Shown in pieces: positions 4,466 through 22,321 of a DNA stretch of 32,752 bases. The DNA comes from Indolivaga alginatilytica (GTDB lineage Bacteria > Bacteroidota > Bacteroidia > Bacteroidales > Dysgonomonadaceae). The stretch spans positions 1 to 32,752 of the forward strand of contig NZ_QICL01000025.1 of the NCBI RefSeq assembly GCF_003201355.1, in the 5' to 3' direction. Each line of letters starts with the position of its first letter. Position 1 is the first letter of the stretch. The position numbers and the translations under genes were made by a program. The notes beneath the pieces were generated by a model, which saw only the letters and a list, made by a program, of their open reading frames with translations, was not told the origin of the DNA and searched no databases.

Positions 4466-4470
4466 AATTA

Positions 4471-5343: not shown

Positions 5344-5369
5344 AGTTTAATGAATTATATTATTAGTAA

Positions 5370-5969: not shown

Positions 5970-5995
5970 CACAAATATAATCATTATGATCATTA
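5970..5995 (-). promoter_or_regulatory. Late-type promoter with palindromic activator site, copy 1 (capsid operon)
   Basis: On the minus strand a TATATTTG box (5972-5979) matches the Bacteroidota -7 consensus TAnnTTTG. Immediately upstream and overlapping it is ATGATCATAATGATTAT (5977-5993), an 8+1+8 inverted repeat with one mismatch. No TTTG -33 element is seen. The start codon of the coiled-coil gene lies 30 bases downstream. The same arrangement recurs at 10031-10052 and 22275-22296. Confidence 0.65.
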
Positions 5996-6031
5996 TATAA
6001 TCTTTTAGGATTTATTATTTGCATTCATTAT

Positions 6032-6063
6032 TTTGTTTTCTCGTAAAAAGAGTTATATATTTG
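6032..6063 (+). promoter_or_regulatory. Canonical Bacteroidota promoter driving a candidate small RNA
   Basis: TTTG (6032-6035) and TATATTTG (6056-6063) are separated by exactly 20 bases, matching the Bacteroidota housekeeping consensus TTTG-N19-21-TAnnTTTG. It points rightwards into a short non-coding stretch that ends at the convergent MuF gene. Transcription would begin near 6067. Confidence 0.65.
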
Positions 6064-6065
6064 TA

Positions 6066-6138
6066 TCACAAAGTGGGTAAAGCTTATGCTCCCACATTGT
6101 GCCAGCCGTTATAGTCTCGTATTATAGCGGCTTTCTCG
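6066..6138 (+). ncRNA. Candidate small RNA with two stable hairpins
   Basis: Downstream of the promoter at 6032-6063 lie two hairpins and no reading frame. Hairpin 1 pairs CACAAAGTGGG (6067-6077) with CCCACATTGTG (6091-6101) through an A-A mismatch, and its loop can add an AGC/GCT pair. Hairpin 2 pairs AGCCGTTATA (6104-6113) with TATAGCGGCT (6123-6132), with one U-G wobble. It is followed by TTCTC, a weak U-tract that could act as terminator. The RNA would be about 70 bases and converge on the 3' end of the MuF-toxin gene, whose stop is only about 10 bases past hairpin 2. Read from the minus strand the same hairpins could instead end the MuF transcript, though no T-tail follows them. No known RNA family is recognised. 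Confidence 0.5.
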
Positions 6139-6142
6139 TTGC

Positions 6143-7486
6143 CTAATACCTATAAACTTTCCCATCAACTATAAATACTATTTCTTTGAATTGATAATCC
6201 GATTGACCTTTAAACATGGCAAGTCCTTTACTTATACGCTCCATAGAGAATAATTCTTTATCAGGAAAATACAATATTACCGATTCTGCTTCTTGTGATT
6301 GAGCTTCTTGAAATTTGCGTTTTATCGTATTCTTTCCAGATCCTTCAACAGCTTTAATATCGGTTTTAACCCCGTTCAAATATCCATCGGAAAACTTTTT
6401 ACCGGGTTCTCCTTTTTCATTCTCTAAAATAATCACATCTCCATTCTTATATAATATATCTTGGACCTCTTTCTCATAATGTCCTTTTGTCGGATGGAAA
6501 GAATGATCTTTGTGCGTAGCTTTTACACCTCCATTATCATTGTGTTCTACATTTGTATAGTCCGGATTTTTCTTTAGTCTATCGAATTCATTCTTGTTAG
6601 CATATTTCCCGATATTATCCTCAAACCTCATTCTCAATTGAAGCGGAACTTGTTCTTTAGATATCGGGTATAATTGATGTCCGCAATTATACCCCCCTCT
6701 GTTTACCTGGAAATTATTTGCAGTGGTATCTTCGAACATCCCAAGAGGTAATCCATCTTTACCTAGCTTACATTGATGCCCATCGATTAAGCCGTTTACT
6801 ATATCCGGTATTTCCGATGTATGAACATATTTTTTATCAGTGAGGTGCTCGCAAAATTCCCTGGTAGTCGTTTTATTGGATCCTACATAAATAAACCATT
6901 CATAGTTTAAATCAGCAGTTATCAGTTTAGTGTGTTCTGCCGAAAAGATACTCAAAGCGTCAACAACAGGAGTTTGAACTTGCTTTTTTATAAGACTCTG
7001 CTTTTCATCTCCAACTATAAGCTTCTCCAGATTGAGTGTCAGGTCTTTGTAAGAACCTCCTGTTGTAACCGATGTCCGGATAACATCTCTTATCTTGCTT
7101 ACAACCGTTTCAGTATATCCTTTTCCGGTCAGAGTTTCCAGTGTATTATCAATGGCCGTATTTGTAACAACCTTCGATATTGGTTTTTTGCTATCAAACG
7201 ATTGATTCTGTAGATTTGCGACAATAGAAAATTGTCTTACATACTCTTTAACTGAAGATAGATACTCTTTGGACAGTAGAGCTTTAAACAACTGCGTTTT
7301 AATCTCATTCAGTTTTTTGAGATTGGCAATTGACGCTCTAATATTACCGGATGAATCGACATCTAAATCCTTAACTACTCCAAGTATTTTTTTATATACC
7401 TCTTGTTCGGTTTTGGATAATTGCCCTATAAAGTTATCCGGAGCATTAGATATTATCTTCAGTACCTTCTGAAGATCCTTCTCCAT
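6143..7486 (-). CDS. MuF-type minor head protein with C-terminal CdiA-like tRNA nuclease domain
   Basis: A 447-residue two-part protein. Residues about 1-290 are a phage Mu gpF / SPP1 gp7-like head morphogenesis protein. This part shows the C-terminal signature of the family: TTTREFCEHLTDKKYVH (206-222), then a Cys/His element GHQCKLG (236-242) and RGGYNCGHQLYPIS (263-276). Residues about 318-447 form a separate domain with HPTKGHYEKEVQDIL (331-345), DGYLNGVKTDIKAVE (367-381) and ESVILYFPDK (401-410). This resembles the CdiA C-terminal tRNA-nuclease family known from contact-dependent inhibition toxins. MuF proteins with toxin tails are described as polymorphic toxins of temperate phages, probably delivered with the virion. 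It overlaps the portal gene by 41 bases. No immunity gene is evident nearby. Catalytic residues are not assigned with confidence. Confidence 0.8.
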   Translation of the reverse strand: MEKDLQKVLKIISNAPDNFIGQLSKTEQEVYKKILGVVKDLDVDSSGNIRASIANLKKLNEIKTQLFKALLSKEYLSSVKEYVRQFSIVANLQNQSFDSKKPISKVVTNTAIDNTLETLTGKGYTETVVSKIRDVIRTSVTTGGSYKDLTLNLEKLIVGDEKQSLIKKQVQTPVVDALSIFSAEHTKLITADLNYEWFIYVGSNKTTTREFCEHLTDKKYVHTSEIPDIVNGLIDGHQCKLGKDGLPLGMFEDTTANNFQVNRGGYNCGHQLYPISKEQVPLQLRMRFEDNIGKYANKNEFDRLKKNPDYTNVEHNDNGGVKATHKDHSFHPTKGHYEKEVQDILYKNGDVIILENEKGEPGKKFSDGYLNGVKTDIKAVEGSGKNTIKRKFQEAQSQEAESVILYFPDKELFSMERISKGLAMFKGQSDYQFKEIVFIVDGKVYRY

Positions 7487-9212
7487 TTAGCTCTACTTTA
7501 ATGGTGTTTTGGGGTGTGTTCTCAGCTATTATTGCTTGAGCATAGGTTTTAATAATTTCTCTTTTCTCTTTAAATGTTTTCCTTAAGAAATTATCATTTT
7601 CATTGATGGCTATATTTACCAACTGAACGATGTTACAACTAATAACGTAATCAACTTCTGTAATACCTCCATTTGAAAGCATTGTCATTTTTTCATCTTG
7701 TGAATTTCCATAGAAAGGATCCATATCGAATATACATTGTAATTCATCGGCTTTATCCGGATCTGCATTGTATCTCTTCCTGATGAATTCGACTTCCATA
7801 TTCTTTTTGACAACAGGATTAACCTGAGCTGTATTTGCCTCACGAATCTCACCCATCAAATAACTGGAGTTTAACAAATCAAATCTCTCTGGAACTGCAA
7901 TTCTTGGTAATAGATTCTGTCTGGCTTCTTTGTCAGTAATAATAACTGAATATCTAACATCACATATAAATCTATAAGCATTATCCAAAATCCTTACTAT
8001 ATCTTCTGCTATCGAACTTACAAACGTGTTAAGAGCATCTCTGTCAACCTCTTTTGCTACTCCCGATTGATTTAATGACACGTTAGATAGGAATTCCATA
8101 TTGATAGACGCCAAAGCCTTATACAGATGCTTATCGACTCTCTGATCCTGTAATTCTGCTATTTTTGTGTCTTTATAGATATAACCAATAGGAGGGGTTG
8201 GGGCTTGTGCTTCTCCTGCCTTTGCCATATCTACCAAGAAAACACCATAAGGAGAAACGTTAGTGATCCTTCCTGATCCGGTACATTTACTACATGTAGA
8301 TTTATTTTTCAGTTTACCGGCACCGTTACAATCGGGACAATCGGTATTTGTATAATAATACTTCTCAGAATGGATGTGCTGGACTATTTCGGCTTGGAGA
8401 TCGGAATACTCCCGAGCAGCTTCATCCAGTTCAGGTACCATATACTGAATACGGCTTTCATATATCGTATCATTATTAACTCTACATTTGTACTCACCGC
8501 CTGCCTTAAAAGCCGGTAGATATCCTAAATTGTGGTTATATTCCAAATCGAGTTCCAAGTCATATTTACCTGTGACTTGCTTGTATCTGAGTATCTGTTC
8601 CATGGTAATAATATAAATAATATCTCCTTGGTAAATCCTGTTATTACCGGCTCGATAGACATTTTTATCAGCACTTTTCAGTACTACATAGCCACCTTCT
8701 ACATAATCAAGAACCTGCTCCGATGAGAATACCTCAACAATAGGTTTAATATACTCATTCGATTGAGCAGGCATATTTTTTAGAACCAATGCAATGATAG
8801 AGTTAGCATCTATCAGATATCTTCTTAGGAGCTCTGAAAATGCCCAATTTGTCAAAGATGAAAAGCCTGGGTAATTCTCTTCACAATATCTCTCCAATGT
8901 TTCATCACCGGATATTTTTTTAGGAATATCATCATCATTATATGAGATATTCCAGTCTTGGGATCGTCTTATTTTTTGAAGTTCGGTTAGTACTTTGCCG
9001 ATTTCCTTTTTAGTTACCGACTTATATATCTTTTTCCTATATTCGAAAATAGCCTTAGATTCCGAAGGTCTTCGTTCGGCTATAAGTTTATCGGGAAATA
9101 AACCATCTGCGTGTATCTTTATCGCTTCAGCAAGCTCTACAGTTGCAGTATAATTAGGATGTCTGTAATTTATGGCATTTCTTACAAATTCGGGAGTTAT
9201 AATTGGAGGCAT
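7446..9212 (-). CDS. Portal protein with embedded zinc-knuckle motif
   Basis: A 588-residue protein of portal size and position, directly before the MuF head protein with overlapping frames, as in SPP1/HK97-type head modules. The middle has AREYSDLQAEIVQHIHSEKY, a long helix. Around residues 292-314 are two CxxC pairs in a DnaJ-like pattern (C292PDCNGAGK and C307SKCTGSG), which would bind one zinc ion. The C-terminal part has a helical QxGxAKE-like element (NQSGVAKEVDRDALN) followed by a long helical region, as seen in portal stems and crowns. It would form the dodecameric channel for DNA entry and the docking point for terminase. Confidence 0.8.
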   Translation of the reverse strand: MPPIITPEFVRNAINYRHPNYTATVELAEAIKIHADGLFPDKLIAERRPSESKAIFEYRKKIYKSVTKKEIGKVLTELQKIRRSQDWNISYNDDDIPKKISGDETLERYCEENYPGFSSLTNWAFSELLRRYLIDANSIIALVLKNMPAQSNEYIKPIVEVFSSEQVLDYVEGGYVVLKSADKNVYRAGNNRIYQGDIIYIITMEQILRYKQVTGKYDLELDLEYNHNLGYLPAFKAGGEYKCRVNNDTIYESRIQYMVPELDEAAREYSDLQAEIVQHIHSEKYYYTNTDCPDCNGAGKLKNKSTCSKCTGSGRITNVSPYGVFLVDMAKAGEAQAPTPPIGYIYKDTKIAELQDQRVDKHLYKALASINMEFLSNVSLNQSGVAKEVDRDALNTFVSSIAEDIVRILDNAYRFICDVRYSVIITDKEARQNLLPRIAVPERFDLLNSSYLMGEIREANTAQVNPVVKKNMEVEFIRKRYNADPDKADELQCIFDMDPFYGNSQDEKMTMLSNGGITEVDYVISCNIVQLVNIAINENDNFLRKTFKEKREIIKTYAQAIIAENTPQNTIKVELNGEGSSEGTEDNI

Positions 9213-9260
9213 ATAACATACATATTCATTGTTTTATGTTTTTGTATTGTCATTTGACCT

Positions 9261-10010
9261 TTAATAATTTCGCATTAATAATATTTCTTGTTCGGACACC
9301 TTTGTAGATGCTTTATATAATGTGGAATCACCTTCATGTATCGACTCTTCATAATCTATTTGATAATCTCCTGTTTCATTCACCTGAATGTCATCAATGA
9401 CAACATCATGCATTAACATGACTTGTATCTTCTTGTGAAAGTCTACCGGACTATAGTTAATGTTTAAATCGTAAACATCTCTCCTTAGTTTAAAGGGATT
9501 ATGAATATGTCCATTGGCATCAATATATTCTTCTGTTTCCGTTTTGGGATTTTTGTTTGCCATTTCGATAGGAAGCCTAACATATAATCTATATCCGTCA
9601 TAAAACGGAAAATAAGTGCGAACCTCGCTGTAATAACTTACAAGTAAACCCTTAGATTCATTGTCATAAGAAAAGATGTTAGAATAGCATTTAGTGCCAT
9701 CCTTGTTTGTTTCCATAATACGAAAACAATCTCCACATGCCAGATATTTTGAAATATCGAAGTCAGGGAAATTAAAATATGCTAAATATAGATTTGTCGC
9801 GTGCTCAATTCTCGTGATCTCCGTAATAATATCTCCACTAATATTACATAGATTAAGTATAAGCGTGTTACCAAGTTGGTGATAATTACTTTCAAAATAT
9901 GCATAAAAAGAGATATCTGATAATTCGGATACTTCCAAAATCGGAGAACAGTTACATTCAATAAGTTCTTTATCGAATTGTATAAATGAGTATTGGGGCG
10001 TTGTAAGCAT
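9261..10010 (-). CDS. Phage structural protein of unknown role, first gene of the portal operon
   Basis: The start is set at the ATG at 10010 (MLTTPQYSFIQFDKELIECN), 249 residues. An upstream in-frame ATG at 10043 falls inside the promoter palindrome and cannot be transcribed from it. The protein is beta-rich, with NIFSYDNESKGLLVSYYSEV, PFYDGYRLYVRLPI, then EEYIDANGHIHNPFKLRRDV and IQVMLMHDVVIDDI. It has no signal peptide or membrane helix. Proteins of this composition accompany virion genes in Bacteroidota phages, but no function is recognised. It heads an operon with portal and MuF, so a virion or assembly role is likely. A baseplate or tail role is the main alternative. Confidence 0.65.
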   Translation of the reverse strand: MLTTPQYSFIQFDKELIECNCSPILEVSELSDISFYAYFESNYHQLGNTLILNLCNISGDIITEITRIEHATNLYLAYFNFPDFDISKYLACGDCFRIMETNKDGTKCYSNIFSYDNESKGLLVSYYSEVRTYFPFYDGYRLYVRLPIEMANKNPKTETEEYIDANGHIHNPFKLRRDVYDLNINYSPVDFHKKIQVMLMHDVVIDDIQVNETGDYQIDYEESIHEGDSTLYKASTKVSEQEILLMRNY

Positions 10011-10030
10011 ATTCTTTAGATAATAGTATA

Positions 10031-10052
10031 CAAATATAATCATTGTGATTAT
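10031..10052 (-). promoter_or_regulatory. Late-type promoter with palindromic activator site, copy 2 (portal operon)
   Basis: Minus-strand TATATTTG (10031-10038) overlaps ATAATCACAATGATTAT (10036-10052), an inverted repeat differing from the perfect copy at 22280-22296 by one base. The gene start at 10010 lies 21 bases downstream of the box. No -33 TTTG is present at the expected distance. Confidence 0.65.
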
Positions 10053-10342
10053 TATTACATCATATTAGACTATTCAAATTCTGCTAGATTTTTATTTAGT
10101 AATATTTAACCAAAATACTTCCTTTTTCAGTGAACAAGACTGATTTGATTGCATAATTTTGAAGAGTATACAAAAAAATGATGGGCAAAAACTTACATTC
10201 CAAATTAATAATATTATCACAAACAATCACTTATAAAGGTCATGCAGAATCGACTACCTTATAATTTATCTATCTACCACGATCGAACAAATGAATCAAT
10301 GTATATGTTATTAACAATAGACGTACATTTATAGACTGAGCA
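10053..10342. other. Divergent intergenic region without a gene
   Basis: An AT-rich 290-base spacer between the portal operon promoter and the plus-strand accessory pair. No convincing coding frame is seen on either strand. TACATTTA (10324-10331), 12 bases before the ATG at 10343, matches the -7 consensus in 7 of 8 positions and may drive the accessory pair. No matching -33 element was found. Confidence 0.45.
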
Positions 10343-10768
10343 ATGATAAAAGAAAATAAAAAAAGTTCTATTCCTGAGAAATCTATCCTTTTAAGGGATT
10401 TGGAAGCCAAACGCATGTATTTACAATATTTGCCAGTTTGTATTGCTCAAAACTCAGTGCCTTCAAATAGTATAGATCTGAGCTGTGTTATGAAAGAAAT
10501 GGACAAACTGAGACAAGAATATGAGATGCTTAAAACTTCATTAAAAGCTGAAGAGTTACGCAACTATAATCAAAATTTAGCCCATAATAAAAACACTCAA
10601 ATTTCAGTTAATGATATAATCGAATGCATTGGAATGATTAACAAGAAAAATGCTAGATCAATATTAGAGAAAATCGGTATTATTAATAAGGATGGCAGTT
10701 TGTCCGAAAATTATATAGAATCCGAAGATAAAATTTCATATCGTTACCACACAGCTACACAAAAATAA
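10343..10768 (+). CDS. Small protein paired with ADP-ribosyltransferase-like gene, possible antitoxin
   Basis: A 141-residue soluble protein with no recognised family. It has a helical, coiled-coil-like middle (CVMKEMDKLRQEYEMLKTSLKAEEL, about residues 50-75) followed by a compact C-terminal part (SVNDIIECIGMINKKNARSI) that could be a small helical DNA- or protein-binding domain. Its stop is immediately followed by the ATG of the next gene with no gap, so the two are co-translated. It points opposite to the phage structural genes, like a cargo gene. Small-gene-first pairing with an ADP-ribosyltransferase-like protein suggests an antitoxin or partner, which is inference only. Confidence 0.7.
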   Translation: MIKENKKSSIPEKSILLRDLEAKRMYLQYLPVCIAQNSVPSNSIDLSCVMKEMDKLRQEYEMLKTSLKAEELRNYNQNLAHNKNTQISVNDIIECIGMINKKNARSILEKIGIINKDGSLSENYIESEDKISYRYHTATQK

Positions 10769-11380
10769 ATGTATTCTAAATCTCGTAATATTATAATCGG
10801 ATTTCACGGTTGTGATAAATCCGTAAGGGATGACATTATCCTGGGAAGAACACCAATGGACAAAAGCGACAATGACTATGATTGGCTTGGAGGAGGTTTT
10901 TACTTCTGGGAAAACAATTTAGACAGAGCTTTATATTTTGCACAAGAAAAACAGATAAGAAAACCTGAAGAAATAAAAGAACCTTCTGTACTTGGAGCTT
11001 TTATTGATCTAGGATATTGTCTAGATTTATTAGATACTAAATATCTAAGTCTATTACCTCCAGCACATGAGTTTCTATGTAAAACAATGGCAATGAGTGG
11101 AAAGGTAATACCTAAAAATGGAGGAAAATTCACCTGTACAAATGATTTATTATTAAGATTCCTTGATTGTGCTGTCATCGAAAGTTTGCATCTGTTAAAT
11201 ATAGAAACCAAGAATAATCAATTCGATTCTGTACGTGGAGTCTTTTGGGAAGGCGTAGATCTATATCCAGACGCAGGATTTAAGGAAAAGAATCACATCC
11301 AAATTTGTGTAAGAAACCCTAATTGCATAAAGGGATATTTTATACCAAGAGATAAAGATGGTAATTTTATAAATCCTTAA
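10769..11380 (+). CDS. ADP-ribosyltransferase-like protein, candidate toxin
   Basis: A 203-residue protein. The N-terminal GFHGCDKSV (H13), then DYDWLGGGFYFWENNLDRAL (Y45) and a late VFWEGVDLYP (E161) resemble the spaced H-Y-E elements of diphtheria-toxin/PARP-like ADP-ribosyltransferases: FHG for NAD binding, GxGFYF as the second motif, and a late Glu. It belongs to a widespread set of uncharacterised bacterial proteins with the GFHGCDxSV...DYDWLGxGxYFWE pattern, from memory. There is no secretion signal, so it would act in the cytoplasm. It is directly fused in operon with the 141-residue partner, which suggests a toxin-antitoxin or phage-defence unit carried as cargo. The enzymatic assignment is by motif only. 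Confidence 0.7.
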   Translation: MYSKSRNIIIGFHGCDKSVRDDIILGRTPMDKSDNDYDWLGGGFYFWENNLDRALYFAQEKQIRKPEEIKEPSVLGAFIDLGYCLDLLDTKYLSLLPPAHEFLCKTMAMSGKVIPKNGGKFTCTNDLLLRFLDCAVIESLHLLNIETKNNQFDSVRGVFWEGVDLYPDAGFKEKNHIQICVRNPNCIKGYFIPRDKDGNFINP

Positions 11381-11388
11381 AACTATAC

Positions 11389-11414
11389 AAAAAAAAAGCC
11401 TCGATTAAGAGGCT
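11389..11414 (-). terminator. Rho-independent terminator after the small gene at 11440
   Basis: Stem AGCCTC/GAGGCT (11397-11402 with 11409-11414), loop of six, followed on the minus strand by nine Ts (11389-11397). The plus-strand gene ending at 11380 can also use the hairpin, but its downstream tail is weaker. It therefore insulates two convergent accessory units. Confidence 0.8.
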
Positions 11415-11439
11415 CTACCTATATTTTTATTTAAAAGGA

Positions 11440-11688
11440 TTATTGTTTAAAGACCACATTGAACTTTGAGAATTCGACTGCATTAAACATGGGTAAATTA
11501 CCTCTATTTTGAGCTATCAATTGCTTTCTCTCATCTTCAAAAATCAAAGCTGCTTGTGTTATTTTATTCTTCAACCTATTCTCTGTAAATACACATCCAG
11601 CCACTTCTTCTAACATAAATTCGTTAAATAGTTTCATCAATGTTCTTACATATAAGTTGTTTGTGTCTATTACTATTTCTTTTTTCAT
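11440..11688 (-). CDS. Small hypothetical protein downstream of the antirepressor
   Basis: An 82-residue soluble protein starting MKKEIVIDTNNLYVRTLMKL. It is mainly helical with a Cys at residue 32, and has no recognised motif. It lies 32 bases after the antirepressor gene on the same strand and is followed by a strong terminator, so the two form a short operon. It may assist or modulate the antirepressor, but nothing in its sequence shows this. Confidence 0.6.
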   Translation of the reverse strand: MKKEIVIDTNNLYVRTLMKLFNEFMLEEVAGCVFTENRLKNKITQAALIFEDERKQLIAQNRGNLPMFNAVEFSKFNVVFKQ

Positions 11689-11720
11689 ATTATTTTAGGT
11701 ATTATACAATTAATAATTAG

Positions 11721-12419
11721 TTAACCTTCTCTTTCGAATAACAGGAACATTTCACGTGCATATTTTTTACATGCCAAGTGTTGCTTTTTCAAAAGATCAT
11801 TCAACCTCCTGTTTTCAAGTTCCGCCAATAGCATCCTATTAACAGCCTTAAATGTCTTCATCGAATTGTCGTGGTAACTGGTTATCATTTGGCAGATATT
11901 CCATTTGTAGCTGTAGTTCTCATCCCATTGGTGAAGAATGACAGCATTATTATCAGTAAAGAATTCATTCTCTCTCAAATGCCTGAGAATACTATCCTGA
12001 TACATCTCATAGGCTCTGCGAATAGTTTTGTCGTAATCTTCGTAACGGGGTTTAATGGCTTTGGGCTGTTTAGCTGCTTTGTGGAATACTTTCCGGTATA
12101 CCTCAAACACCGGGCGGATCTTTCGGGCAATAAAATATTCTAAGCAGGAAACCGAAAGAAGGTAAAAAGTAGTTGGACGACCGCCTTTAGAGTTTTCAGC
12201 ATTTTTGCTGAAAACTTGATAATCAATATTTTCAATAAAATTTACTCTTAATGAACGTACTGCTTCATTCTTTCCAGAATAAACTAACATCCATACCTCA
12301 TCTAAATTAATAGGGAATGATTCTTCCAGTTGTGATAGTTGCAAAACCTTTTGAAAATAGGCTTTAATTTCGCTTGTGCTGCTACTCTTGGATAGAGTAA
12401 TTTGATTGTTTTTGTTCAT
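11721..12419 (-). CDS. AntA/AntB-like phage antirepressor
   Basis: The chosen start is the ATG at 12419 (MNKNNQITLSKSSS), 232 residues. The frame extends upstream to 12548, but that part covers a nested hairpin and is unlikely to be translated. Residues about 30-110 show an AntA/AntB-type pattern: FPINLDEVWMLV, then FIENIDYQVFSKNAENSKGGRP, then TFYLLSVSCLEYFIARKIRPVFEVYRKVFHKA. In phages these proteins inactivate lytic repressors or act as DNA-binding switches. The C-terminal half is helical (WDENYSYKWNICQMI, LLKKQHLACKKYAREMF) with no recognised domain. It lies in the accessory island, divergent from a lipoprotein operon. Confidence 0.7.
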   Translation of the reverse strand: MNKNNQITLSKSSSTSEIKAYFQKVLQLSQLEESFPINLDEVWMLVYSGKNEAVRSLRVNFIENIDYQVFSKNAENSKGGRPTTFYLLSVSCLEYFIARKIRPVFEVYRKVFHKAAKQPKAIKPRYEDYDKTIRRAYEMYQDSILRHLRENEFFTDNNAVILHQWDENYSYKWNICQMITSYHDNSMKTFKAVNRMLLAELENRRLNDLLKKQHLACKKYAREMFLLFEREG

Positions 12420-12425
12420 GATTAT

Positions 12426-12490
12426 GTATGTTTGGCTATTATAGGCAGAAAAAAAGAACGGCTGCCATATCCCATTGTCGCCAAACATAC
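12426..12490 (-). promoter_or_regulatory. Nested hairpin in the antirepressor leader
   Basis: A perfect 11-bp inverted repeat (GTATGTTTGGC at 12426-12436, GCCAAACATAC at 12480-12490) encloses a smaller GGCAG/CTGCC repeat (12444-12448 and 12462-12466). On the minus strand the 3' arm ends 6 bases before the ATG at 12419, so the folded RNA would cover the ribosome landing site. A TAATTTTG -7 box (12548-12555) would give a leader of about 120 bases containing the whole structure. It could be a translational switch or a DNA operator. Confidence 0.55.
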
Positions 12491-12547
12491 AAACTAACAG
12501 TATTCCTGAGAGAATGTTGGGATAGACAACCGTCTTATTTTGTATCA

Positions 12548-12638
12548 CAAAATTAGGGTATGTCTTTAAATAAGAAAATACTCCAAAAGGAGTATAACAG
12601 TTTTACTGTCACTTGTATATTTGGCTGATACAAATATA
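12548..12638. promoter_or_regulatory. Divergent control region with facing promoters and two palindromes
   Basis: A perfect inverted pair of -7 boxes, TATATTTG (12616-12623, plus) and its complement CAAATATA (12631-12638, minus), lies 7 bases apart. The two divergent promoters therefore overlap. Two palindromes lie to the left: ATACTCC-AAAA-GGAGTAT (12578-12595) and ACAGT-TTT-ACTGT (12597-12609). On the minus strand the first is followed by TTTCTTATTT and could be an attenuator of leftward transcription. A further minus box TAATTTTG is at 12548-12555. These are candidate operators for a phage regulator. Confidence 0.5.
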
Positions 12639-12741
12639 TAAATATTTTTATTACATTCGCATAATTGATTGATTATTAACAATATAGAAATCATATTGAT
12701 TGTATTATAATCTTAATGATTGCTCGAAAAGCATAAAAAAA

Positions 12742-13452
12742 ATGGAAATATTTTTGTATTTAATAGCTCTAGCAATAATTGTAATATTATGTGGTGCATC
12801 TGCAAATAATAGAAGAAAAAAACAGGGGAGAACCTCAGAGTCCGTAAGTACACCTTCAGAAAATACAGTTAACGGAACCTCAGAGGAACTAAAGTTATTA
12901 ACTAAAGTGAGAGAGATATTTGAGTCCGGTAAAGCAATGCCATTATATGATATTTACAAAGAAGTTGAATATAATGAAGCTATTGAAATCTTACCTACAA
13001 AAGAGAATTCCAAAGCCTCTGAATTATTTCATCAGTATTGCCATGCAATAAGTAATAGATATTATATTAAATATTACGAATTAAAACCTTCTGAATCAAA
13101 TAAAATAAATTTAAGAGATGGTGAATTAATATATTACACTATATGTGACTCCAAATTGTTTGATAGTAAAAATTTGTATAGAGCTGTTGATCTCGGTAAT
13201 ATATATTTTACGAATAAAAGATTGTTGTTTGTAGGCAAACAATTTAATGTAGTAAAATCCTACACATATAAAAGTATTATCACTTATAATAGATATAAAG
13301 ATGCTGTATCAATATCTATAGAAAACCAGAATCCGAAATTGTTTAAGTTTGAACCATCAAAAGATAGTTTATTCATACAAGATGGATTAAATGAATTATC
13401 TATACTTTTACCAAGATTTATAAATAATAACTATACTCAAGATTCGGTATGA
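12742..13452 (+). CDS. Membrane-anchored protein with PH/GRAM-like domain
   Basis: The start is taken at the ATG at 12742 (MEIFLYLIALAIIVILCGAS), 236 residues. An upstream TTG at 12700 would put polar residues before the membrane helix and is less likely. One N-terminal transmembrane helix (about residues 2-19) is followed by a basic stop-transfer segment (NNRRKKQ) and a soluble cytoplasmic region. Residues about 125-210 contain DGELIYYTICDSK, GNIYFTNKRLLFVGKQF, a KSII segment and ISIENQNPKLFKFE, a layout like bacterial PH/GRAM-like domains. It overlaps the downstream lipoprotein start by ATGA. It is a cargo gene candidate that may alter the host envelope or block superinfection. This role is inferred. 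Confidence 0.65.
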   Translation: MEIFLYLIALAIIVILCGASANNRRKKQGRTSESVSTPSENTVNGTSEELKLLTKVREIFESGKAMPLYDIYKEVEYNEAIEILPTKENSKASELFHQYCHAISNRYYIKYYELKPSESNKINLRDGELIYYTICDSKLFDSKNLYRAVDLGNIYFTNKRLLFVGKQFNVVKSYTYKSIITYNRYKDAVSISIENQNPKLFKFEPSKDSLFIQDGLNELSILLPRFINNNYTQDSV

Positions 13453-13790: not shown

Positions 13791-13799
13791 TTTTACCTC
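13780..13799. terminator. Convergent terminator covering both stop codons
   Basis: Perfect 8-bp stem GAGGTAAA/TTTACCTC (13780-13787 with 13792-13799) with loop TAAT. The plus-strand lipoprotein stop is in the loop side (13788-13790) and the minus-strand tail gene ends at 13793. It can serve both convergent transcripts, but both tails are short on T residues, so efficiency is uncertain. Confidence 0.45.
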
Positions 13800-15871: not shown

Positions 15872-18800
15872 TACATTGTAGTTTTAAATTTACTATTCAG
15901 GTGCTTTACTTTTGTATTTCCGTCTGTTACAGTAGTTCCCGATCGATCAACAGATACATATACCGGGCGTTGAACGGGAGTCTTTTGATACTTAGCAACA
16001 GATCTTCCAACCCTATCATAATCTATCTCTGTATTATAAGTTCTTCTTGCATCGCTTATTAATTGTTGACTGATAACAGGTGATACAGGATAAGAAGGAT
16101 CTATTGCCGGCATATTCCACTTTGACATAACCGATCGGTCACCATTCATGGCTCTTATTGAATCATGAGCCGGCATAATTGAGGCTCCTTTAGGAATCCA
16201 CATAATCTCGGGACCGTATTCACCAACCAGAGCATGTTCACCTTCTCCTCCTTTTCGTCCTTTCCAGTATCTGGGAAGAGGTTGTGACCTTATCGCATTC
16301 AACTGAGCGAACGTCTGAACACCGACAAGAGCAGCGACAATTGCAGAGTATGGAAAAGGAAAATCTTTAAATGCTCGAGCGATAGCTTGCCCGTTAGTTA
16401 AAATCAGATTGAAAATAGCTTGATTTTTTTCGGCTTGGGCTGCTTTTCTCTTTAACTCCAACTGTCTTCTGTTATATTCTTCTTCTGAAATAAGTTTTAA
16501 ACTTGAATTGCTTTTAGCCTTTTCAGCATCAGTTGTATAATAGTGATCAAGGTCAGAAAGCTGTTGCTGTATTTGAGCTTTCTGATTATCAAAACTCAAT
16601 GTTGCAAGAGTTGAGATTGTATTAAATAACTCGTCTTGGATAGCAGCTCGACTTTCAGCTTCTTGTTCAGCTATTTGAATACGTTTTTCAGATAACTCTT
16701 GTTCAAGATCAATCGTATCTTCTCCATTCTTTCTTCTTGTTGAAATTTGCTTATTGAGAGAATCAATGGTTATCTTGTTCAATTCACTCTCATAGGCTCT
16801 TCTGGATAACTTTCCATTCTCATATTGTTGAGTAGCAATGAGAGTCTCAGTGTTGACTTGCTTTTGGAGATTTGTCGAATCCTGCTCTGTAAGTATCTCT
16901 TTTTTCTCTTTAGCTAATTCTGCATTTATTTCTTTTATCCTTGCTGCTTTAAATTCCTCATTCTTAATTGTATTTTCCACATCCTGTAGTTCAAGTTTAG
17001 CTTTTTCTTCAGCTAAATCAAGTCTTAACTGATATTCTTCTGTGGATCCGGAGTGTGTTTGAGCTAATTTTGCATTAATTACGGAAATATTACCGTTAAT
17101 TGTATTTTCAGCGACTTTATTGGTAAAGTCTTCATCTAATTTAAGAGCTTCTTTTCTGTATTTAGCCTCAATTGCTTTAATTTGATTTATTGTAAGGTTG
17201 CGTTCGGAGAGTTCTATTTCTTTTTGTTTTTCTAACTGATTTACCTTTAAATTATACTCCTCAAGAGAACCCTCTTTTGCTGCTGATAACCCGGCATTGA
17301 TCAATTCCACTTCATCTTGAAGTTGTTTCTTGGTGAATTCATCCCTTAATTGCTGAATCTGCAATTCGGTTTCCTTGGTAATCAGGAGACGTTCACCCTT
17401 TGTAATGTCAGCATTCTGGAGATCAACATTCTTTTTAACTTCAAGAGCAGCGATTTGAGCGTTGAGCTCTTCCATGGTTCCCTTTTTAGTGAGAATTACT
17501 TTATATTGGGCAAGTGCAACAGCTGACTTTTTACCAGCCTCAGCAGCTCTCTTATTAGATTCTATTTCATCAAGTTCTCTTTGATGCCTAGCTTCTTCGT
17601 CCTCTTTTTCGGCTTCTTGTGCATTACTTATTTTTAAACGGAAATTACCAAGTCTTTCTTGAATGTTTTCTTTGAATTTCTGGAACTTCTCTTCATCGAT
17701 ATCAAATTTTTGAATTTTACCATCAATTTTAAACTTCATTACAGTTTTTCCTTGATCTCGTAATTTTTGAGACTCATCATTGATGAGCTTAAGTTGCTTT
17801 TCGAGTTCTTCAGCTTTCTTTTTATTATTTTCAAGACTACTTATTTCTTCACCATAATGCAGACGCAAAGAATTAGCTACTCTAACCCTCTCATCATTGA
17901 TTTGCTTCCTTTTCTGAGCTAGTTGAGCCTCACTAGCTCCACCAGCTTTCATTAATTCATATTCACGTTCCAACAATCTGATAGAATCTTCTCCATTTTC
18001 TTTAATCCTATCTGCCATTTCTTTTTTAATCTCAATGGATTCCCGTTGAAGATCATTAAGTTTTTTCTGTTTTTCAGAAGCAGTTTCCGTATTTCTAGAA
18101 AATATGTACAATGCTCCAACAACTGATAAAAGCGCAACAGCTAATAATACATAAGGATTAGCCATTGCAACCAGATTAAAGGCTTTCTGTGCTATGGTTG
18201 CTAAAATAGTATTTTTAGTAGCTAATGATTCAGCAATAGCTTTTGCTCTTAACTGAAGGGCTGCAACAGCCATCATGAGGTTACTTTCTTTCTGAACTGC
18301 ATTCTGTATTTGTTGCAATCCAGTATTGATTGCGATCAATGATTGCATTTTAAGCATCAGTTGTTGAACATCTTTATTCTCTTCACCGAAGATACTCATT
18401 GCGCCGGTCAATACCGAAAACCCTCCAGATGCGAGTTGTGTTCCTTCGAGAATAGTATCGAATATTCTTGTATCAGAGGCTTCGTTATTGATTTGTCTAT
18501 TTACGTCTCCCTGTATATCAGCGAGCCTTCCGGCTTCTTCAACCAATCTTTGGTATTCATCTGATCCTGTATCTCCCATGACTTCCATCATGGCGATTTG
18601 CTCTCTAATATTCCGGAGCATAGTCCGGAATGATTGATTCATAGCTTCAGTAGGAATACTATTTTGTAATTCTCTCTGAGCTTGAGAAAGATCAGTTATA
18701 CTTCTTCTAGTTTGCGTTAGTTGATTTCTGACCTCTTGAATTCTTCTCCCATATTCTTGAGTAGCTCGTGACTGATCTTGTGTATTTCGGGCATTCAATT

Positions 18801-18942
18801 GAGCTGCTTGTTGTTCTCTTCGTAGTTGAGCAACTTTATCTATGAGTTCTTGTTCTCGCTTCTTTAGTTCTTCGAGTTTCTTATTTGCTTCATCCAATCC
18901 ACCGGTATCAGCCGTGAAATTGATTAATACATTATTTGCCAT
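15871..18942 (-). CDS. Tape measure protein
   Basis: A 1023-residue protein that sets tail length. It starts MANNVLINFTADTGGLDEAN and has long coiled coils at about residues 20-110 and 290-750. A hydrophobic helix around 255-280 (ANPYVLLAVALLSVVGALYIF) and a late hydrophobic region (FPFPYSAIVAALVGVQTFAQL) are typical of the transmembrane segments used in genome delivery. The middle has at least three divergent units of about 65-75 residues, each with a G-(T/S)-x-EEYxL-type core: KKGTMEELNAQIAALE, KEGSLEEYNLKVNQLE and HSGSTEEYQLRLDLAE. Near the C-terminus is GEHALVGEYGPEIMWIPKGA, a segment common in tape measures. It follows the frameshifted tail chaperone, the expected order. Confidence 0.9.
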   Translation of the reverse strand: MANNVLINFTADTGGLDEANKKLEELKKREQELIDKVAQLRREQQAAQLNARNTQDQSRATQEYGRRIQEVRNQLTQTRRSITDLSQAQRELQNSIPTEAMNQSFRTMLRNIREQIAMMEVMGDTGSDEYQRLVEEAGRLADIQGDVNRQINNEASDTRIFDTILEGTQLASGGFSVLTGAMSIFGEENKDVQQLMLKMQSLIAINTGLQQIQNAVQKESNLMMAVAALQLRAKAIAESLATKNTILATIAQKAFNLVAMANPYVLLAVALLSVVGALYIFSRNTETASEKQKKLNDLQRESIEIKKEMADRIKENGEDSIRLLEREYELMKAGGASEAQLAQKRKQINDERVRVANSLRLHYGEEISSLENNKKKAEELEKQLKLINDESQKLRDQGKTVMKFKIDGKIQKFDIDEEKFQKFKENIQERLGNFRLKISNAQEAEKEDEEARHQRELDEIESNKRAAEAGKKSAVALAQYKVILTKKGTMEELNAQIAALEVKKNVDLQNADITKGERLLITKETELQIQQLRDEFTKKQLQDEVELINAGLSAAKEGSLEEYNLKVNQLEKQKEIELSERNLTINQIKAIEAKYRKEALKLDEDFTNKVAENTINGNISVINAKLAQTHSGSTEEYQLRLDLAEEKAKLELQDVENTIKNEEFKAARIKEINAELAKEKKEILTEQDSTNLQKQVNTETLIATQQYENGKLSRRAYESELNKITIDSLNKQISTRRKNGEDTIDLEQELSEKRIQIAEQEAESRAAIQDELFNTISTLATLSFDNQKAQIQQQLSDLDHYYTTDAEKAKSNSSLKLISEEEYNRRQLELKRKAAQAEKNQAIFNLILTNGQAIARAFKDFPFPYSAIVAALVGVQTFAQLNAIRSQPLPRYWKGRKGGEGEHALVGEYGPEIMWIPKGASIMPAHDSIRAMNGDRSVMSKWNMPAIDPSYPVSPVISQQLISDARRTYNTEIDYDRVGRSVAKYQKTPVQRPVYVSVDRSGTTVTDGNTKVKHLNSKFKTTM

Positions 18943-19680
18943 CGCTTTTAGGCGGTTTTGGTTTCAAGGCTTTATTAAGTTGGAAGAAAAATTCATAAAT
19001 AGTAAGTGTTGGTAAGTCTACATTCTTTTCTATTAGAATTTGTTTCCAATCTTCAAAGGAATCAATCAGTTTTTGGACTTGGAAAGCCGTAAACGCTCCA
19101 AATGTATCTTGTCTAACTTGTCTATCAGATCTGAATACGTTTCCAAATCGAAGTCTACATTCTGCAAAAATGGAATTAATTCCAGTAACGGCTTTTGTAA
19201 AAAAAAATCAGTCACACCTCTATGTTCTTTCCAAAATGCTATTTTTTTATCACAATATTCTGGTTCATACAAGGATGGATTCTCATTCTTATCAAAGAAA
19301 ACTACAGATGCTAGCTTATATAGAAGCGAGACATCAAAGGATATGTTCAATCGCTCTTTGATCTGCTCATTTAGTTGATTTATTTTAAAAATATCAACTT
19401 GATTAGAATGTAGGAGCTCATGCATTACCTCTACATGCTTTTCAAGATATTCTCTACTGCAATTCATCCTTGTTTCTTCGTATATAGCCAAAGCCATAAG
19501 CCCACGCTCATAAGGAATATTAAACACATCATCAAATTGATAATAGTCAACACCTCCAACAGAGAATGCAATATTGATAATATGGTGTGTATGTGGAAAC
19601 ACTCTCTTCGGATCCTTCCTGTTATGCTTCCAAGTTCTTATTTTCTGTGGTATCTTTCTGAATAAGTTCATATCTTTCAA
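18932..19680 (-). CDS. Tail assembly chaperone GT, made by -1 ribosomal frameshift
   Basis: A shift of reading frame on the T9A run at 19207-19198 (heptamer T TTT TTA, codons 160-161) takes ribosomes from the 204-residue G frame into an 88-codon extension. The extension starts TKAVTGINSIFAECRL, includes DTFGAFTAFQVQKLIDSFED and ends KPPKSDGK at 18932. The -1 frame has TGA immediately before the slip site and further stops upstream, so it is open exactly from the site to a TAA overlapping the tape measure ATG. The predicted product has 249 residues. In lambda and many siphoviruses, G and GT proteins bind the tape measure and recruit tail tube subunits, with GT a minority product. Confidence 0.85.
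19066..19680 (-). CDS. Tail assembly chaperone G (unshifted product)
   Basis: A 204-residue protein, helical, starting MKDMNLFRKIPQKIRTWKHN; an in-frame ATG at 19671 is an alternative start. It contains HHIINIAFSVGGVDYYQFDD and ERGLMALAIYEETRMNC, then a helical C-terminus ending LRLSKSKN. It precedes the tape measure and shares its first 161 residues with the frameshifted GT form. Its 5' end overlaps the upstream 83-residue gene by 59 bases, an unusually large overlap. The family is assigned from position, size and the frameshift rather than from sequence similarity. Confidence 0.75.
   Translation of the reverse strand: MKDMNLFRKIPQKIRTWKHNRKDPKRVFPHTHHIINIAFSVGGVDYYQFDDVFNIPYERGLMALAIYEETRMNCSREYLEKHVEVMHELLHSNQVDIFKINQLNEQIKERLNISFDVSLLYKLASVVFFDKNENPSLYEPEYCDKKIAFWKEHRGVTDFFLQKPLLELIPFLQNVDFDLETYSDLIDKLDKIHLERLRLSKSKN
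19198..19207 (-). other. Slippery site for programmed -1 frameshifting
   Basis: The mRNA reads GAT TTT TTT TTA CAA. Both P- and A-site tRNAs can re-pair after slipping one base back (TTT TTA to TTT TTT), and the new frame continues ACA AAA GCC. TGA ends the -1 frame directly upstream of the run, so the extension cannot be expressed without a shift. Confidence 0.8.
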
Positions 19681-19873
19681 GTGCTTGTTTTAATTGTTCT
19701 GGTTTGTCTGTTATTAGAACCTCATTCCCTTTTTTAATAGAGAATCGATTATTCCGAACTATTACATTATAGTCGAAATGATCGGAATGTTTGTAAAATC
19801 TAGGAGAGCCATTGCAACTACATCCGGTTTTATAATGCTCCCATCCATTAACGAGTAGTAATTCTTTCATCAT
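19622..19873 (-). CDS. Small hypothetical protein with CxC motif
   Basis: An 83-residue soluble protein, with GCSCNGSPRFYKHSDH at about residues 17-32, which may bind metal, followed by a beta-rich part. It overlaps the membrane protein gene before it by 4 bases and the tail chaperone gene after it by 59 bases. It is part of the terminase-tail operon. It is not recognised, and could be a tail assembly factor given its place. Confidence 0.65.
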   Translation of the reverse strand: MMKELLLVNGWEHYKTGCSCNGSPRFYKHSDHFDYNVIVRNNRFSIKKGNEVLITDKPEQLKQALERYELIQKDTTENKNLEA

Positions 19874-20223
19874 TCATCGGGTAAGAGATTAGATATTATT
19901 GCTGTGATAATTGTATTGATGCCACAAACAACGAGGATCATTAATCCAAGATTGAAGTTCCAAAAGAACCAAAACATAATAGTCCAGAAGCTACTCATGC
20001 AAATAATGCATCTGTAAATAGGCGTTAACAGATATAATGTAAGATTCCATGATTTACCTTCTGACATATAAAAAAACTTTCGAAAGAATGCTCTTAGAGA
20101 TTTATCTAGTGTCTTAGAAGTTGAATGAAGAATCATTCCTTTCCATGTCGTAACATGAATAGCAACACAGCATAGACTAATCACCAGAGCTTGAAGCAGC
20201 GTCTGTATCAGATATAGAATCAT
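19870..20223 (-). CDS. Small membrane protein
   Basis: A 117-residue protein with an N-terminal hydrophobic helix (LYLIQTLLQALVISLCCVAI), an amphipathic basic middle (LDKSLRAFFRKFFYMSEGKS) and a long hydrophobic C-terminal half (CIICMSSFWTIMFWFFW; GLMILVVCGINTIITAII). Three membrane helices are likely. PIYRCIICMSSFW is reminiscent of phage small membrane proteins with a CxxCxxFW element. A holin role cannot be excluded but no lysin is nearby. It overlaps the preceding gene by 47 bases. Confidence 0.65.
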   Translation of the reverse strand: MILYLIQTLLQALVISLCCVAIHVTTWKGMILHSTSKTLDKSLRAFFRKFFYMSEGKSWNLTLYLLTPIYRCIICMSSFWTIMFWFFWNFNLGLMILVVCGINTIITAIISNLLPDE

Positions 20224-20395
20224 CTTTTACCTCCTTTTCTTTATATTTGTAACATCCGAAACTTGAAGTTGTCTGAAGATATCGACCACTAATAAAAACA
20301 TCAGTGCCAACTCTTATTTCAGAACAGAGATTTCTGTCAGGATCCTTTCCTATCCAGAATATGCAACTACTACATTGCTTTATTTTCTTTGCCAT
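20177..20395 (-). CDS. Small Cys-containing hypothetical protein
   Basis: A 72-residue protein with CSSCIFW at residues 8-14 and further Cys residues at about 24 and 48, compatible with a small zinc-binding fold. The C-terminal third is acidic and disordered (VKDDSISDTDAASSSGD) and overlaps the next gene. It follows terminase with 71 bases between, where a TATATTTG box (minus, 20421-20428) may be a secondary promoter without a clear -33 element. Function unknown. Confidence 0.6.
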   Translation of the reverse strand: MAKKIKQCSSCIFWIGKDPDRNLCSEIRVGTDVFISGRYLQTTSSFGCYKYKEKEVKDDSISDTDAASSSGD

Positions 20396-20466
20396 AAGTG
20401 AATATTAATTGATTTACATACAAATATACTAATCCGTTTGATTTATATATGTTCATACTGATTATT

Positions 20467-21741
20467 TTATGCTGCGAAATATTTTAGGTAATCTTTAAAG
20501 AATCTATGCAGATAGTACCTAAATGTGTCTAAACAGTCGGCTCTTTGAGATAAGTCCTTTCTATCATCCTTTATTGGCTTACCTTCATTATCAGATTTAA
20601 CATTCATGAGGTCAAATATCAGAGGCTTGCACTTTTGTTCATCAAATACAATATTGTATTGCTCCAACATGGCATTAACAAGTTGTCTGCTTTCTGCCAA
20701 AGGAGGATTTGCTCCGGAATATTGCATCTGATTTCTTGATAATTCAAGAGATAGCTTAATAACATCAAAGTTATTTAGCTGTGACATAGTTGTTTTTGCT
20801 TTGCCAGATATATCTCCTGTGACAATAAAAAAGCAATCAGCATACCTTTCTATTATCTCATCGCAAAGCCTATATATTGTCGAATCATCGATATCAATAA
20901 CCTCAAGGCAATATACAGTATCGTTATAGTGCTGATAAACGGTGCAAACAATTGGATTTCGGTTAAAGTCAAAGGATAGGTAGACAGTTTCTTCTCTATT
21001 AAGTGTACAAGATCCAATATGCTTTTCAGGCCTGAATGAGAACGTCCATTTATCAGTAATATCCAAATAATCCCAATTGCCTTTGAGGAGCCTCTCTTTA
21101 CTTACTTCATCAAGCATTTCAAGATTCTCAATATAGTGTTTAGATATAAATGGATTATCGGTTACCAAGGCTTGAACAAAAGCTCTGTAAGGTTCTAGTC
21201 TGCTTTCCTTAGATGGAAGGTAAAATTCTTCATAAACCCAATTCCTAGCGGGATTACATGATCCCATTATTTTAGGGGTTAACCCGTATTCATCGAGCTT
21301 GTAACGAATCCGGGATTTTAGAATACTCCAGCATTTTTTTGTAATCTGATTACACTCGTCAACGAAAGCTCCGGTTATTTCAAGAGAACCTAATTCATCA
21401 TAATTTGGATCAGATGGATAATAAGCAAGATCTTTGAGAAGTATTTCAGAGCCGTTCGGAAAGAATATTCCTTTGTTCTCTACATAACGATAAGCTATAC
21501 CTAGCTTTGTTGTTAAGTCGAAAAAAGACTTAAGAGTGGTCTCCTTAAGGGTTTTTAAAGATTTTCGCCCCATCACCCATCTTGTGCCTGGATAAGTTAA
21601 ACTTTGTCCTGTGAGCCAAAGCACACCGAGCATTGATTTACCTCCACCAGCAGCTCCTCCATACAACAATTCAGATATATGGGAGAACTGAGGTTCTGTA
21701 AGATAATCATATGCTCTAGTCTGCTTTATTGTCAGTTTCAT
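20467..21741 (-). CDS. Terminase large subunit
   Basis: A 424-residue DNA-packaging motor and nuclease. Walker A GGAAGGGKS (28-36) and Walker B GAFVDEC (124-130, with catalytic E129) form the ATPase. The C-terminal nuclease has the acidic residues expected of the RNase H-like fold: D258 in LSFDFNRNP, D310 in VTGDISGKA, and D402/D405 in RADCLDTFRYYL. Length and motif spacing are normal for phage large terminases. It overlaps the small subunit gene by 26 bases. Confidence 0.95.
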   Translation of the reverse strand: MKLTIKQTRAYDYLTEPQFSHISELLYGGAAGGGKSMLGVLWLTGQSLTYPGTRWVMGRKSLKTLKETTLKSFFDLTTKLGIAYRYVENKGIFFPNGSEILLKDLAYYPSDPNYDELGSLEITGAFVDECNQITKKCWSILKSRIRYKLDEYGLTPKIMGSCNPARNWVYEEFYLPSKESRLEPYRAFVQALVTDNPFISKHYIENLEMLDEVSKERLLKGNWDYLDITDKWTFSFRPEKHIGSCTLNREETVYLSFDFNRNPIVCTVYQHYNDTVYCLEVIDIDDSTIYRLCDEIIERYADCFFIVTGDISGKAKTTMSQLNNFDVIKLSLELSRNQMQYSGANPPLAESRQLVNAMLEQYNIVFDEQKCKPLIFDLMNVKSDNEGKPIKDDRKDLSQRADCLDTFRYYLHRFFKDYLKYFAA

Positions 21742-22267
21742 AAGTCTTTTGGATTATGATTTGCTGATTCTTATGCTCAACTGTCGAATCTATTTTTTGA
21801 GACGGCCTATGTCCGAGAATGTCTGTTAAACTGTCAAGACTTTTCTGCTTGTCATATAGTTTCACTTTTACATACTCCTCTTCAACCGGTTCATCACCCA
21901 TAGTCCTATGGACCGTCTTTGTTGCCACTTCTTGAATACATGCTTTTTGATCATCGGTTAGTTTTTTAAAGTCTTTCAGTTTTATCCAACCATCTCTGAG
22001 TTGACCAACATTAGAGAAAGCAATCTTTGCATGTTCACGAACAATCATCAATGCAGATATCCCAGCTGTTTCTGCAAGGTTAGCTTGCATTTGCTTAACT
22101 CTGGTTTGAACGTCAACATTCGTCAACAATCTCGATCCTATCTGTTTAGCCGTCTTTTTAGAATATCCGGAACGAATAGCAGCTTGAGTTGCATTGAAAT
22201 CAATACAATACTCATAACAGAATCTTTCCTGCTTATCGTTTAATGCTATTTTGTTTTCTTCATTCAT
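21716..22267 (-). CDS. Terminase small subunit
   Basis: A 183-residue DNA-recognition subunit of the packaging terminase. LNDKQERFCYEYCIDFNATQ with AAIRSGYSKKTAKQIGSRLL (about residues 8-47) is the helix-turn-helix pattern of the Terminase_2 family. VKQMQANLAETAGISALMI follows as the oligomerisation helix region. The start codon lies only 7 bases after the TATTTTTG box, so the transcript would have almost no leader. First gene of the late terminase-tail operon. Confidence 0.92.
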   Translation of the reverse strand: MNEENKIALNDKQERFCYEYCIDFNATQAAIRSGYSKKTAKQIGSRLLTNVDVQTRVKQMQANLAETAGISALMIVREHAKIAFSNVGQLRDGWIKLKDFKKLTDDQKACIQEVATKTVHRTMGDEPVEEEYVKVKLYDKQKSLDSLTDILGHRPSQKIDSTVEHKNQQIIIQKTYETDNKAD

Positions 22268-22274
22268 CTACATA

Positions 22275-22296
22275 CAAAAATAATCATTATGATTAT
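22275..22296 (-). promoter_or_regulatory. Late-type promoter with perfect palindrome, copy 3 (terminase operon)
   Basis: Minus-strand TATTTTTG (22275-22282) overlaps the perfect 8+1+8 palindrome ATAATCATAATGATTAT (22280-22296). It lies between the terminator of the early/middle block and the terminase start. It is the best copy of the motif shared with 5970-5995 and 10031-10052. Confidence 0.7.
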
Positions 22297-22321
22297 AATA
22301 TCATCATTTAGATTATACATT

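What the first reader, a model, noticed from the sequence alone, without database searches (positions are those of the whole stretch)
5970..22296. One palindromic late-promoter element heads three structural operons
ATAATCATAATGATTAT (perfect at 22280-22296, one mismatch at 5977-5993 and 10036-10052) sits at a fixed phase over a TAnnTTTG -7 box, before terminase, the portal operon and the capsid operon. No -33 TTTG is present in any copy. Replacement of the -33 element by a palindrome is how activator-dependent phage late promoters are built. It suggests a phage-encoded dimeric activator of late genes, not obviously encoded in this window, in a phylum where late control is little described.
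Basis: partly seen in the sequence, partly recalled or inferred. Interest (0 to 1): 0.7.

Follow-up and report, generated by a model that had tools for sequence, protein, structure and literature searches.

The report
Tandem-operator late promoters of Bacteroidota phages
This prophage marks its late-gene promoters with pairs of small mirror-image DNA sites set 20 letters apart, and a number of other viruses of the same bacterial phylum do the same, pointing to an undescribed switch that times when they build new particles.

Summary
The palindrome abuts a TAnnTTTG box before terS, the portal operon and the capsid operon. It is the proximal half of a larger element: a second dyad lies 20 bp upstream, clear at terS, with one core mismatch at the capsid, degenerate at the portal. 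A further tandem element heads the tail operon after terL. Core: TC-N5-GA twice, then usually one base, then TAnnTTTG.

Of 15 IMG/VR records read whole (nearly all chosen for good-looking hits), 12 carry two or more such sites, 11 if a shared operator counts once. Over 23 records, 39 of 44 sites lie outside ORFs of 100 aa or more; reversed control 0.

A motif-independent portal set is less kind: 11 of 86 loci have it, two of those probably by chance. Some others show a different palindrome there.

Best reading: late promoters under a phage-encoded dimeric regulator, more likely an activator. The missing -33 does not prove that: it is weak in F. johnsoniae promoters too (PMC6847099, passages). 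The regulator is unidentified; a LuxR-type protein was tested and does not track the operator.

The parts
22275..22282 (-). -7 box TATTTTTG of the terS/terL promoter
22280..22296 (.). promoter-proximal dyad (perfect palindrome) of the terS promoter, centre about -18
22300..22316 (.). distal dyad of the terS promoter, centre 20 bp upstream of the proximal one (about -38)
21716..22267 (-). terminase small subunit, first gene after the element (Terminase_2)
20467..21741 (-). terminase large subunit
20421..20428 (-). -7 box TATATTTG of the tail-operon promoter (gap of 4 instead of 1 to the operator)
20429..20445 (.). proximal dyad of the tail-operon promoter
20449..20465 (.). distal dyad of the tail-operon promoter
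   Evidence: orthologous element in L011 at 1969-2013
10031..10038 (-). -7 box TATATTTG of the portal-operon promoter
10036..10052 (.). proximal dyad of the portal-operon promoter
10056..10072 (.). degenerate distal dyad of the portal promoter (right half at 20 bp, left half 1 bp off)
   Evidence: read by eye in the sequence printed; fails the tandem rule
7446..9212 (-). portal protein
5972..5979 (-). -7 box TATATTTG of the capsid-operon promoter
5977..5993 (.). proximal dyad of the capsid-operon promoter
5997..6013 (.). distal dyad of the capsid-operon promoter (one core mismatch)
3329..5942 (-). capsid operon (190-aa, 290-aa and 378-aa genes); the head role is inferred from place and synteny, PHROGs gives no match for the 378-aa protein
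12687..12723 (.). two dyads 20 bp apart in the accessory (moron) region, without a TAnnTTTG box at the usual distance; membership uncertain

Best explanation
These are the late promoters of a temperate Bacteroidota phage. Shown in the sequence: each carries a housekeeping-type TAnnTTTG box, and directly upstream inverted repeats with TC-N5-GA cores, in the clear cases two of them with centres 20 bp apart (about -18 and -38), fill the place of the -33 element; they stand before the terS, tail and capsid operons, and in degenerate form before the portal operon. Inferred: a phage-encoded dimeric regulator made during lytic growth binds the two sites as adjacent dimers on one face of the helix. 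The distal dimer at -38 replaces the -33 contact and recruits RNA polymerase, so the late operons switch on together. The proximal dimer abuts the -7 box and either completes the complex or shuts the promoter at high dose.
For: No tandem pair was found in the early region of this prophage. In the closest relative, found by TerL, elements stand at the three orthologous places plus the tail operon. Spacing of exactly 20 bp in 16 of 16 sites that do not fit the discovery pattern although 12-32 was allowed (6-pair threshold; 16 of 17 at 5 pairs); 4 of the 16 read the other side of an operator that does fit it, which leaves 12. 30 of 44 sites have a 1-base gap to the box (this gap was part of the discovery pattern). 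In phages found without the motif (window, G117, G063) most gaps are 1, the others 0, 2, 4 or 6. Reversed controls 0. Opposite-strand boxes sharing an operator in six records have gap 12, one helical turn more than 1. Operator letters differ between phage groups, as expected of a phage-encoded regulator.
Against: No transcription start, binding or expression data. No regulator identified. A dyad at -18 lies where polymerase sits, which also fits a repressor. 75 of 86 portal-selected loci, many of them fragments, lack the strict element. G131, whose portal is 71% identical, has none and may use another motif. Nearly all records read whole were collected with a pattern that required spacing 20 and gap 1, and were picked by me from the better-looking hits; some are close kin of each other (G104/G116, G102/G111). 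A weak -33 is normal in at least one member of the phylum (PMC6847099).
Confidence: 0.58

Rival explanations
1. Repressor operator. A phage protein of the lysogeny module (for example the small XRE protein coded between CI and integrase) binds both dyads, covers the -7 box and keeps the late operons silent in the lysogen and early in infection.
For: The proximal dyad abuts the -7 box, a classical repressor position. A family of small XRE-like proteins, in the window phage coded between CI and integrase, occurs in 14 of 23 records. The moron-region pair at 12687-12723 lacks a good -7 box.
Against: A fixed register between dyads and box (30 of 44 at gap 1, partly imposed by the search) is not needed for repression. 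The CI/cro region carries a different palindrome. G131 has the XRE family but no operator.
Confidence: 0.23
2. The LuxR/GerE-type HTH protein with a probable membrane segment, second gene of the lytic operon (C25:35886-36227), is the late regulator and the dyads are its boxes.
For: PF00196 over cut-off. Homologues in the four group-A phages whose early region is held: window, G101, G105, G106. Among the TerL-selected loci the only phage with sites (G063) is also the only one with a match to this protein (many loci are fragments). GerE proteins bind palindromes (recalled).
Against: No GerE match over cut-off in the group B and C records that carry the operator (some are fragments). Present in G131 and G120, in which no tandem operator was found (G120 seems to hold more than one element). 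The four phages share other early genes too.
Confidence: 0.13
3. A conserved host DNA-binding protein is used, so no phage regulator is needed.
For: No phage protein was seen to track the operator across groups A, B and C (clustering at BLAST level and reading by eye).
Against: Operator letters change from phage group to phage group. In 604,447 bases of TerL-selected loci, host flanks included, the only three sites were in a prophage.
Confidence: 0.08
4. Unregulated strong promoter: phased AT tracts at -18, -28 and -38 act as a structural upstream element.
For: AT-rich motifs at -18 and -28 are reported for F. johnsoniae promoters (PMC6847099, passages read); the spacers here are AT-rich.
Against: TC and GA sit as dyads with 20-bp spacing also in sites outside the discovery pattern. 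No tandem pair was found in the early region. The invariance of TC and GA in the 27 aligned sites is largely imposed by how they were chosen.
Confidence: 0.06

Closest known systems
Housekeeping promoters of Bacteroidota (sigma-ABfr; -7 TAnnTTTG, -33 TTTG)
   Same: The sites keep TAnnTTTG (consensus: PMC6847099, passages read).
   Different: TTTG at 19-21 bp in 0 of 31; the place is filled by dyads.
Phage Mu late promoters activated by C
   Same: One phage regulator is thought to serve several late operons from sites at or upstream of a poor -35 element (PMC4461284, passages read).
   Different: Here two dyads 20 bp apart, the proximal one abutting the -7 box; no C/Mor-family match among the 20 proteins scanned with PHROGs or the 10 with Pfam.
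C-boxes of R-M controller proteins, especially C.Csp231I (two CTAAG-N5-CTTAG repeats)
   Same: Two inverted repeats of 5-N5-5 design in one promoter; the protein acts positively and negatively by dose (PMC4824078, passages read).
   Different: Different letters, 20-bp centres rather than an 18-nt AT-rich spacer between repeats, many operons rather than one, no controller gene seen beside the sites.
P22 Arc operator (ribbon-helix-helix)
   Same: Adjacent major grooves bound by a dimer of dimers (PMC12645479, passages read); works-like comparison only.
   Different: Arc is a repressor; no ribbon-helix-helix protein was confirmed here.

Membership tests
Bacteroidota sigma-ABfr promoter | TAnnTTTG -7 box | tested here: met
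   terS, tail, portal and capsid sites of the window
Bacteroidota sigma-ABfr promoter | TTTG -33 element at 19-21 bp | tested here: not met
   0 of 31 hand-listed late promoters; the element is weak in F. johnsoniae promoters too (PMC6847099, passages)
Activator-dependent phage late promoter | common operator before several late operons at a fixed place | tested here: met
   terS, tail and capsid in the window, portal degenerate; 12 of 15 chosen records with two or more sites
Activator-dependent phage late promoter | phage activator required for transcription | not testable with these tools
   no expression data; no protein seen to track the operator
CI repressor operator of this phage | same site in the CI/cro control region | tested here: not met
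   that region has a different repeated palindrome and no tandem pair
LuxR/GerE-regulated promoter | GerE protein present wherever the operator is | tested here: not met
   over cut-off in 3 of 15 records plus the window, some records being fragments; present in G131 and G120 without a tandem operator
R-M controller C-box | two inverted repeats of 5-N5-5 type in one promoter | tested here: met
   shape only
R-M controller C-box | controller-protein gene next to the operator | tested here: not met
   no XRE or controller match among the 10 terS-, portal- and capsid-region proteins scanned
Ribbon-helix-helix operator | RHH protein encoded by the phage | tested here: inconclusive
   small divergent genes in groups B and D only; no RHH match in Pfam, PHROGs, NCBIfam or PDB sequences; model with two helices, no significant Foldseek match

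The most novel reading that the evidence does not exclude
Bacteroidota siphophages share an undescribed class of late promoter in which two phased dyads replace the -33 element. It exists in several operator dialects (TC-N5-GA at 20 bp; ATAGA-N5-TCTAT at 31-32 bp) and in bidirectional form. It is read by a fast-evolving phage regulator, possibly the unannotated 50-70 aa proteins coded divergently from the capsid promoter in six records of group B and three of group D.
Probability: 0.3. Interest if true: 0.8.

Novelty: new variant of a known kind. Interest (0 to 1): 0.6.

Why it matters
I found no description of late gene control in phages of Bacteroidota, dominant gut and environmental bacteria, in the paper searches run here. 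A motif that marks late promoters from sequence alone would let operons be called in uncultured phages. The 20-bp and 1-base geometry gives a testable model for how a regulator works with the unusual sigma factor of this phylum.

Tried and rejected
CI operator: rejected, because the CI/cro region has other repeats. LuxR protein as the sole regulator: rejected as a general answer. The 104-aa gene before terS: no PHROG or NCBIfam match and one weak Pfam match far below cut-off, and the relative's sequence upstream of terS looks different (by eye). GerE in groups B and C: none over cut-off, one weak match in G103 inside a probable terS gene. Ribbon-helix-helix identity of the small divergent proteins: seen by eye only; Pfam, NCBIfam, PHROGs, PDB sequence and Foldseek searches did not support it. 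The second structure job (A4) had not finished at the last look. The single-dyad scan of IMG/VR (36 stretches) gave mostly isolated hits that look like chance. The window portal protein has no match in 50,697 phage records. A shorter pattern over 101 genomes of the family gave 10 places in 8 genomes against 2 for the backward control; those outside the window were looked at only briefly. Papers: the searches were seen as listings; passages were read in five papers, none whole.

Limits: one search reported 101 stretches; 80 loci were listed and their 82 matches read, of which 42 have dyad scores of 6 or less out of 12 and look like chance. I picked 18 loci (17 of those plus L107, found by protein); 15 of their 18 records were read whole. 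Sites count a box, so one operator with boxes on both sides counts twice. In one search, 153 relatives matched and 80 were kept; L106 and L107 were not rescanned. One search left out L010 (the window's own record) and L011 (the closest relative), and some of its loci overlap. G131 was read to base 60,000 of 60,898. Groups A to D are my labels from shared genes, not from a tree.

Full report
Setting. The window is the first 32,752 bases of a 67,225-base contig (G000:C25). It is a prophage: structural genes on the - strand; beyond the window lie a lytic operon, a CI-type S24 repressor at C25:36624-37304 and an integrase-like gene at C25:37583-38905 (integrase by eye). The host family is probably Dysgonomonadaceae: a 'same family' genome, G063, has a contig of the length of one of Proteiniphilum sp. 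X52 (inference, family name recalled).

The observation. Using the numbering of PMC6847099 (passages), where the box spans -12 to -5, the dyad centre is about -18. The dyad by itself is not rare: over the whole genome it is little above its control (149 against 121), and weaker dyads lie inside genes.

What was missed. Aligned promoters show a second dyad 20 bp further up, centre about -38: clear at terS (22300-22316), with one core mismatch at the capsid (5997-6013) and degenerate at the portal. A further element heads the tail operon after terL (20421-20465), with its box 3 bp further away. A pair of dyads at 12687-12723 in the accessory region has no good box. The tandem rule is met 3 times in the window against a mean of 0 and a largest of 0 in 200 shuffles.

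Conservation near by. IMGVR_3300009856_000219 (TerL 88%, portal 80% identical), found by protein, has the element at the three orthologous places, at the tail operon and before one accessory gene. TC, GA and TTTG stay while the N5 letters change. The Proteiniphilum prophage (TerL 41%) has three elements; in what I take to be the same prophage in IMG/VR (G106) they stand before probable terS, lysis and capsid genes. In 604,447 bases of TerL-selected loci, the window's own record and its closest relative left out, these three were the only sites.

Conservation further away. A scan of IMG/VR for the tandem pattern gave 101 stretches; the 80 listed loci held 82 matches, 42 of them with low dyad scores. 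I picked the better-looking ones; 15 records, one of them found by protein, were read whole. Twelve of 15 have two or more sites, 11 if an operator shared by two boxes counts once; G112 and G118 have one each, inside an ORF, and look like chance. Genes just downstream read as terS/terL, holin and endolysin, capsid-region and tail-region genes (by translation and clustering, not tested by profile), and the portal operon in the closest relative. Over 23 records and 949,415 bases there are 44 sites, 39 outside ORFs of 100 aa or more, and 0 in the reversed sequences. Sites outside the discovery pattern have spacing 20 in 16 of 16 at the 6-pair threshold and 16 of 17 at 5 pairs; 4 of them read the other side of an operator that fits the pattern, and one lies inside an ORF. 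Gap to the box: 1 in 30, 4 in 4, 12 in 6, others in 4. The six gap-12 sites are opposite-strand boxes at the capsid operator of G102, G103, G104, G110, G111 and G116.

Against it. A portal-based set, independent of the motif, was scanned: 86 loci, 11 with the strict element, 7 of them in records already seen, 2 new with spacing 20, 2 with spacing 19 that look like chance; reversed control 3 hits, none at spacing 20. Reading the capsid promoters by eye, some others show a different palindrome in the same place, for instance ATAGA-N5-TCTAT-like dyads, two copies 31-32 bp apart, in five loci; in three of these records read whole such dyads recur at bidirectional promoters. A large group shows a bare box. 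G131 has no tandem element; TTATATTTTA lies just before its tail, portal and scaffold genes, but this motif occurs 6 times in the 60,000 bases read. So the element is widespread but far from universal.

The regulator. A LuxR/GerE protein with a probable membrane segment (by eye) is present in the four group-A phages whose early genes are held, has no match over cut-off in groups B and C, and is present in G120 and G131, where no tandem operator was found. Small proteins coded divergently from the capsid operator occur in six group-B and three group-D records. They match no family well; one model has two helices after an extended start, and Foldseek found nothing significant. The regulator is not identified.

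How it probably works. Two dimers side by side on one face of the helix, the upstream one at the place of the -33 element. A strict register with the box favours contact with polymerase, hence activation; the dyad at -18 would also allow repression. R-M controller proteins show how one protein can do both on two 5-N5-5 repeats (PMC4824078, passages). The missing -33 is not in itself evidence (PMC6847099, passages).

Verdict. A real, conserved late-promoter element, larger than reported; its direction of control and its protein remain open.

Noticed in passing
window 6143-7486 (-): The gene after portal has a weak Mu-F-like stretch (below cut-off) and a C-terminal CdiA_C domain (PF18451, E 5e-07), so it looks like a phage head-associated protein carrying a contact-inhibition toxin-type tail.
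   Followed up: no
window 31984-32748 (-), continuing in L008 1985-2926: Protein built of near-identical repeats (DSDNDVR..AASNPNTPVEVLTVLSK), part of it masked as N in the genome copy.
   Followed up: no
window 5370-5942 (-): The first gene of the capsid operon holds an internal duplication (EKQAHADTGNKLKLEQEGHASTKNALEALNIEFG).
   Followed up: no
G131 (L375-L377) 29326, 45118, 48893: A close relative of the window phage has TTATATTTTA just before the tail, portal and scaffold genes (3 of 6 occurrences; a fourth lies before a probable terS), perhaps another late-promoter type.
   Followed up: partly
G128 44120/44163 and 31088/31134; G129 32675/32719 and 19185/19230; G130 13431/13475 and 38/84: Bidirectional promoters with ATAGA-N5-TCTAT-like dyads and a TAnnTTTG box on each side.
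   Followed up: partly
C25:36432-36623 (L008): The CI/cro intergenic region holds two copies of a different palindrome, ACAGATATTTTCTGT, probably the CI operator.
   Followed up: no
L008 13356-18239 (C25:43355-48238): Beyond the prophage integrase lie genes resembling a phage/plasmid-type primase and other mobile-element genes, perhaps a second integrated element (by eye).
   Followed up: no
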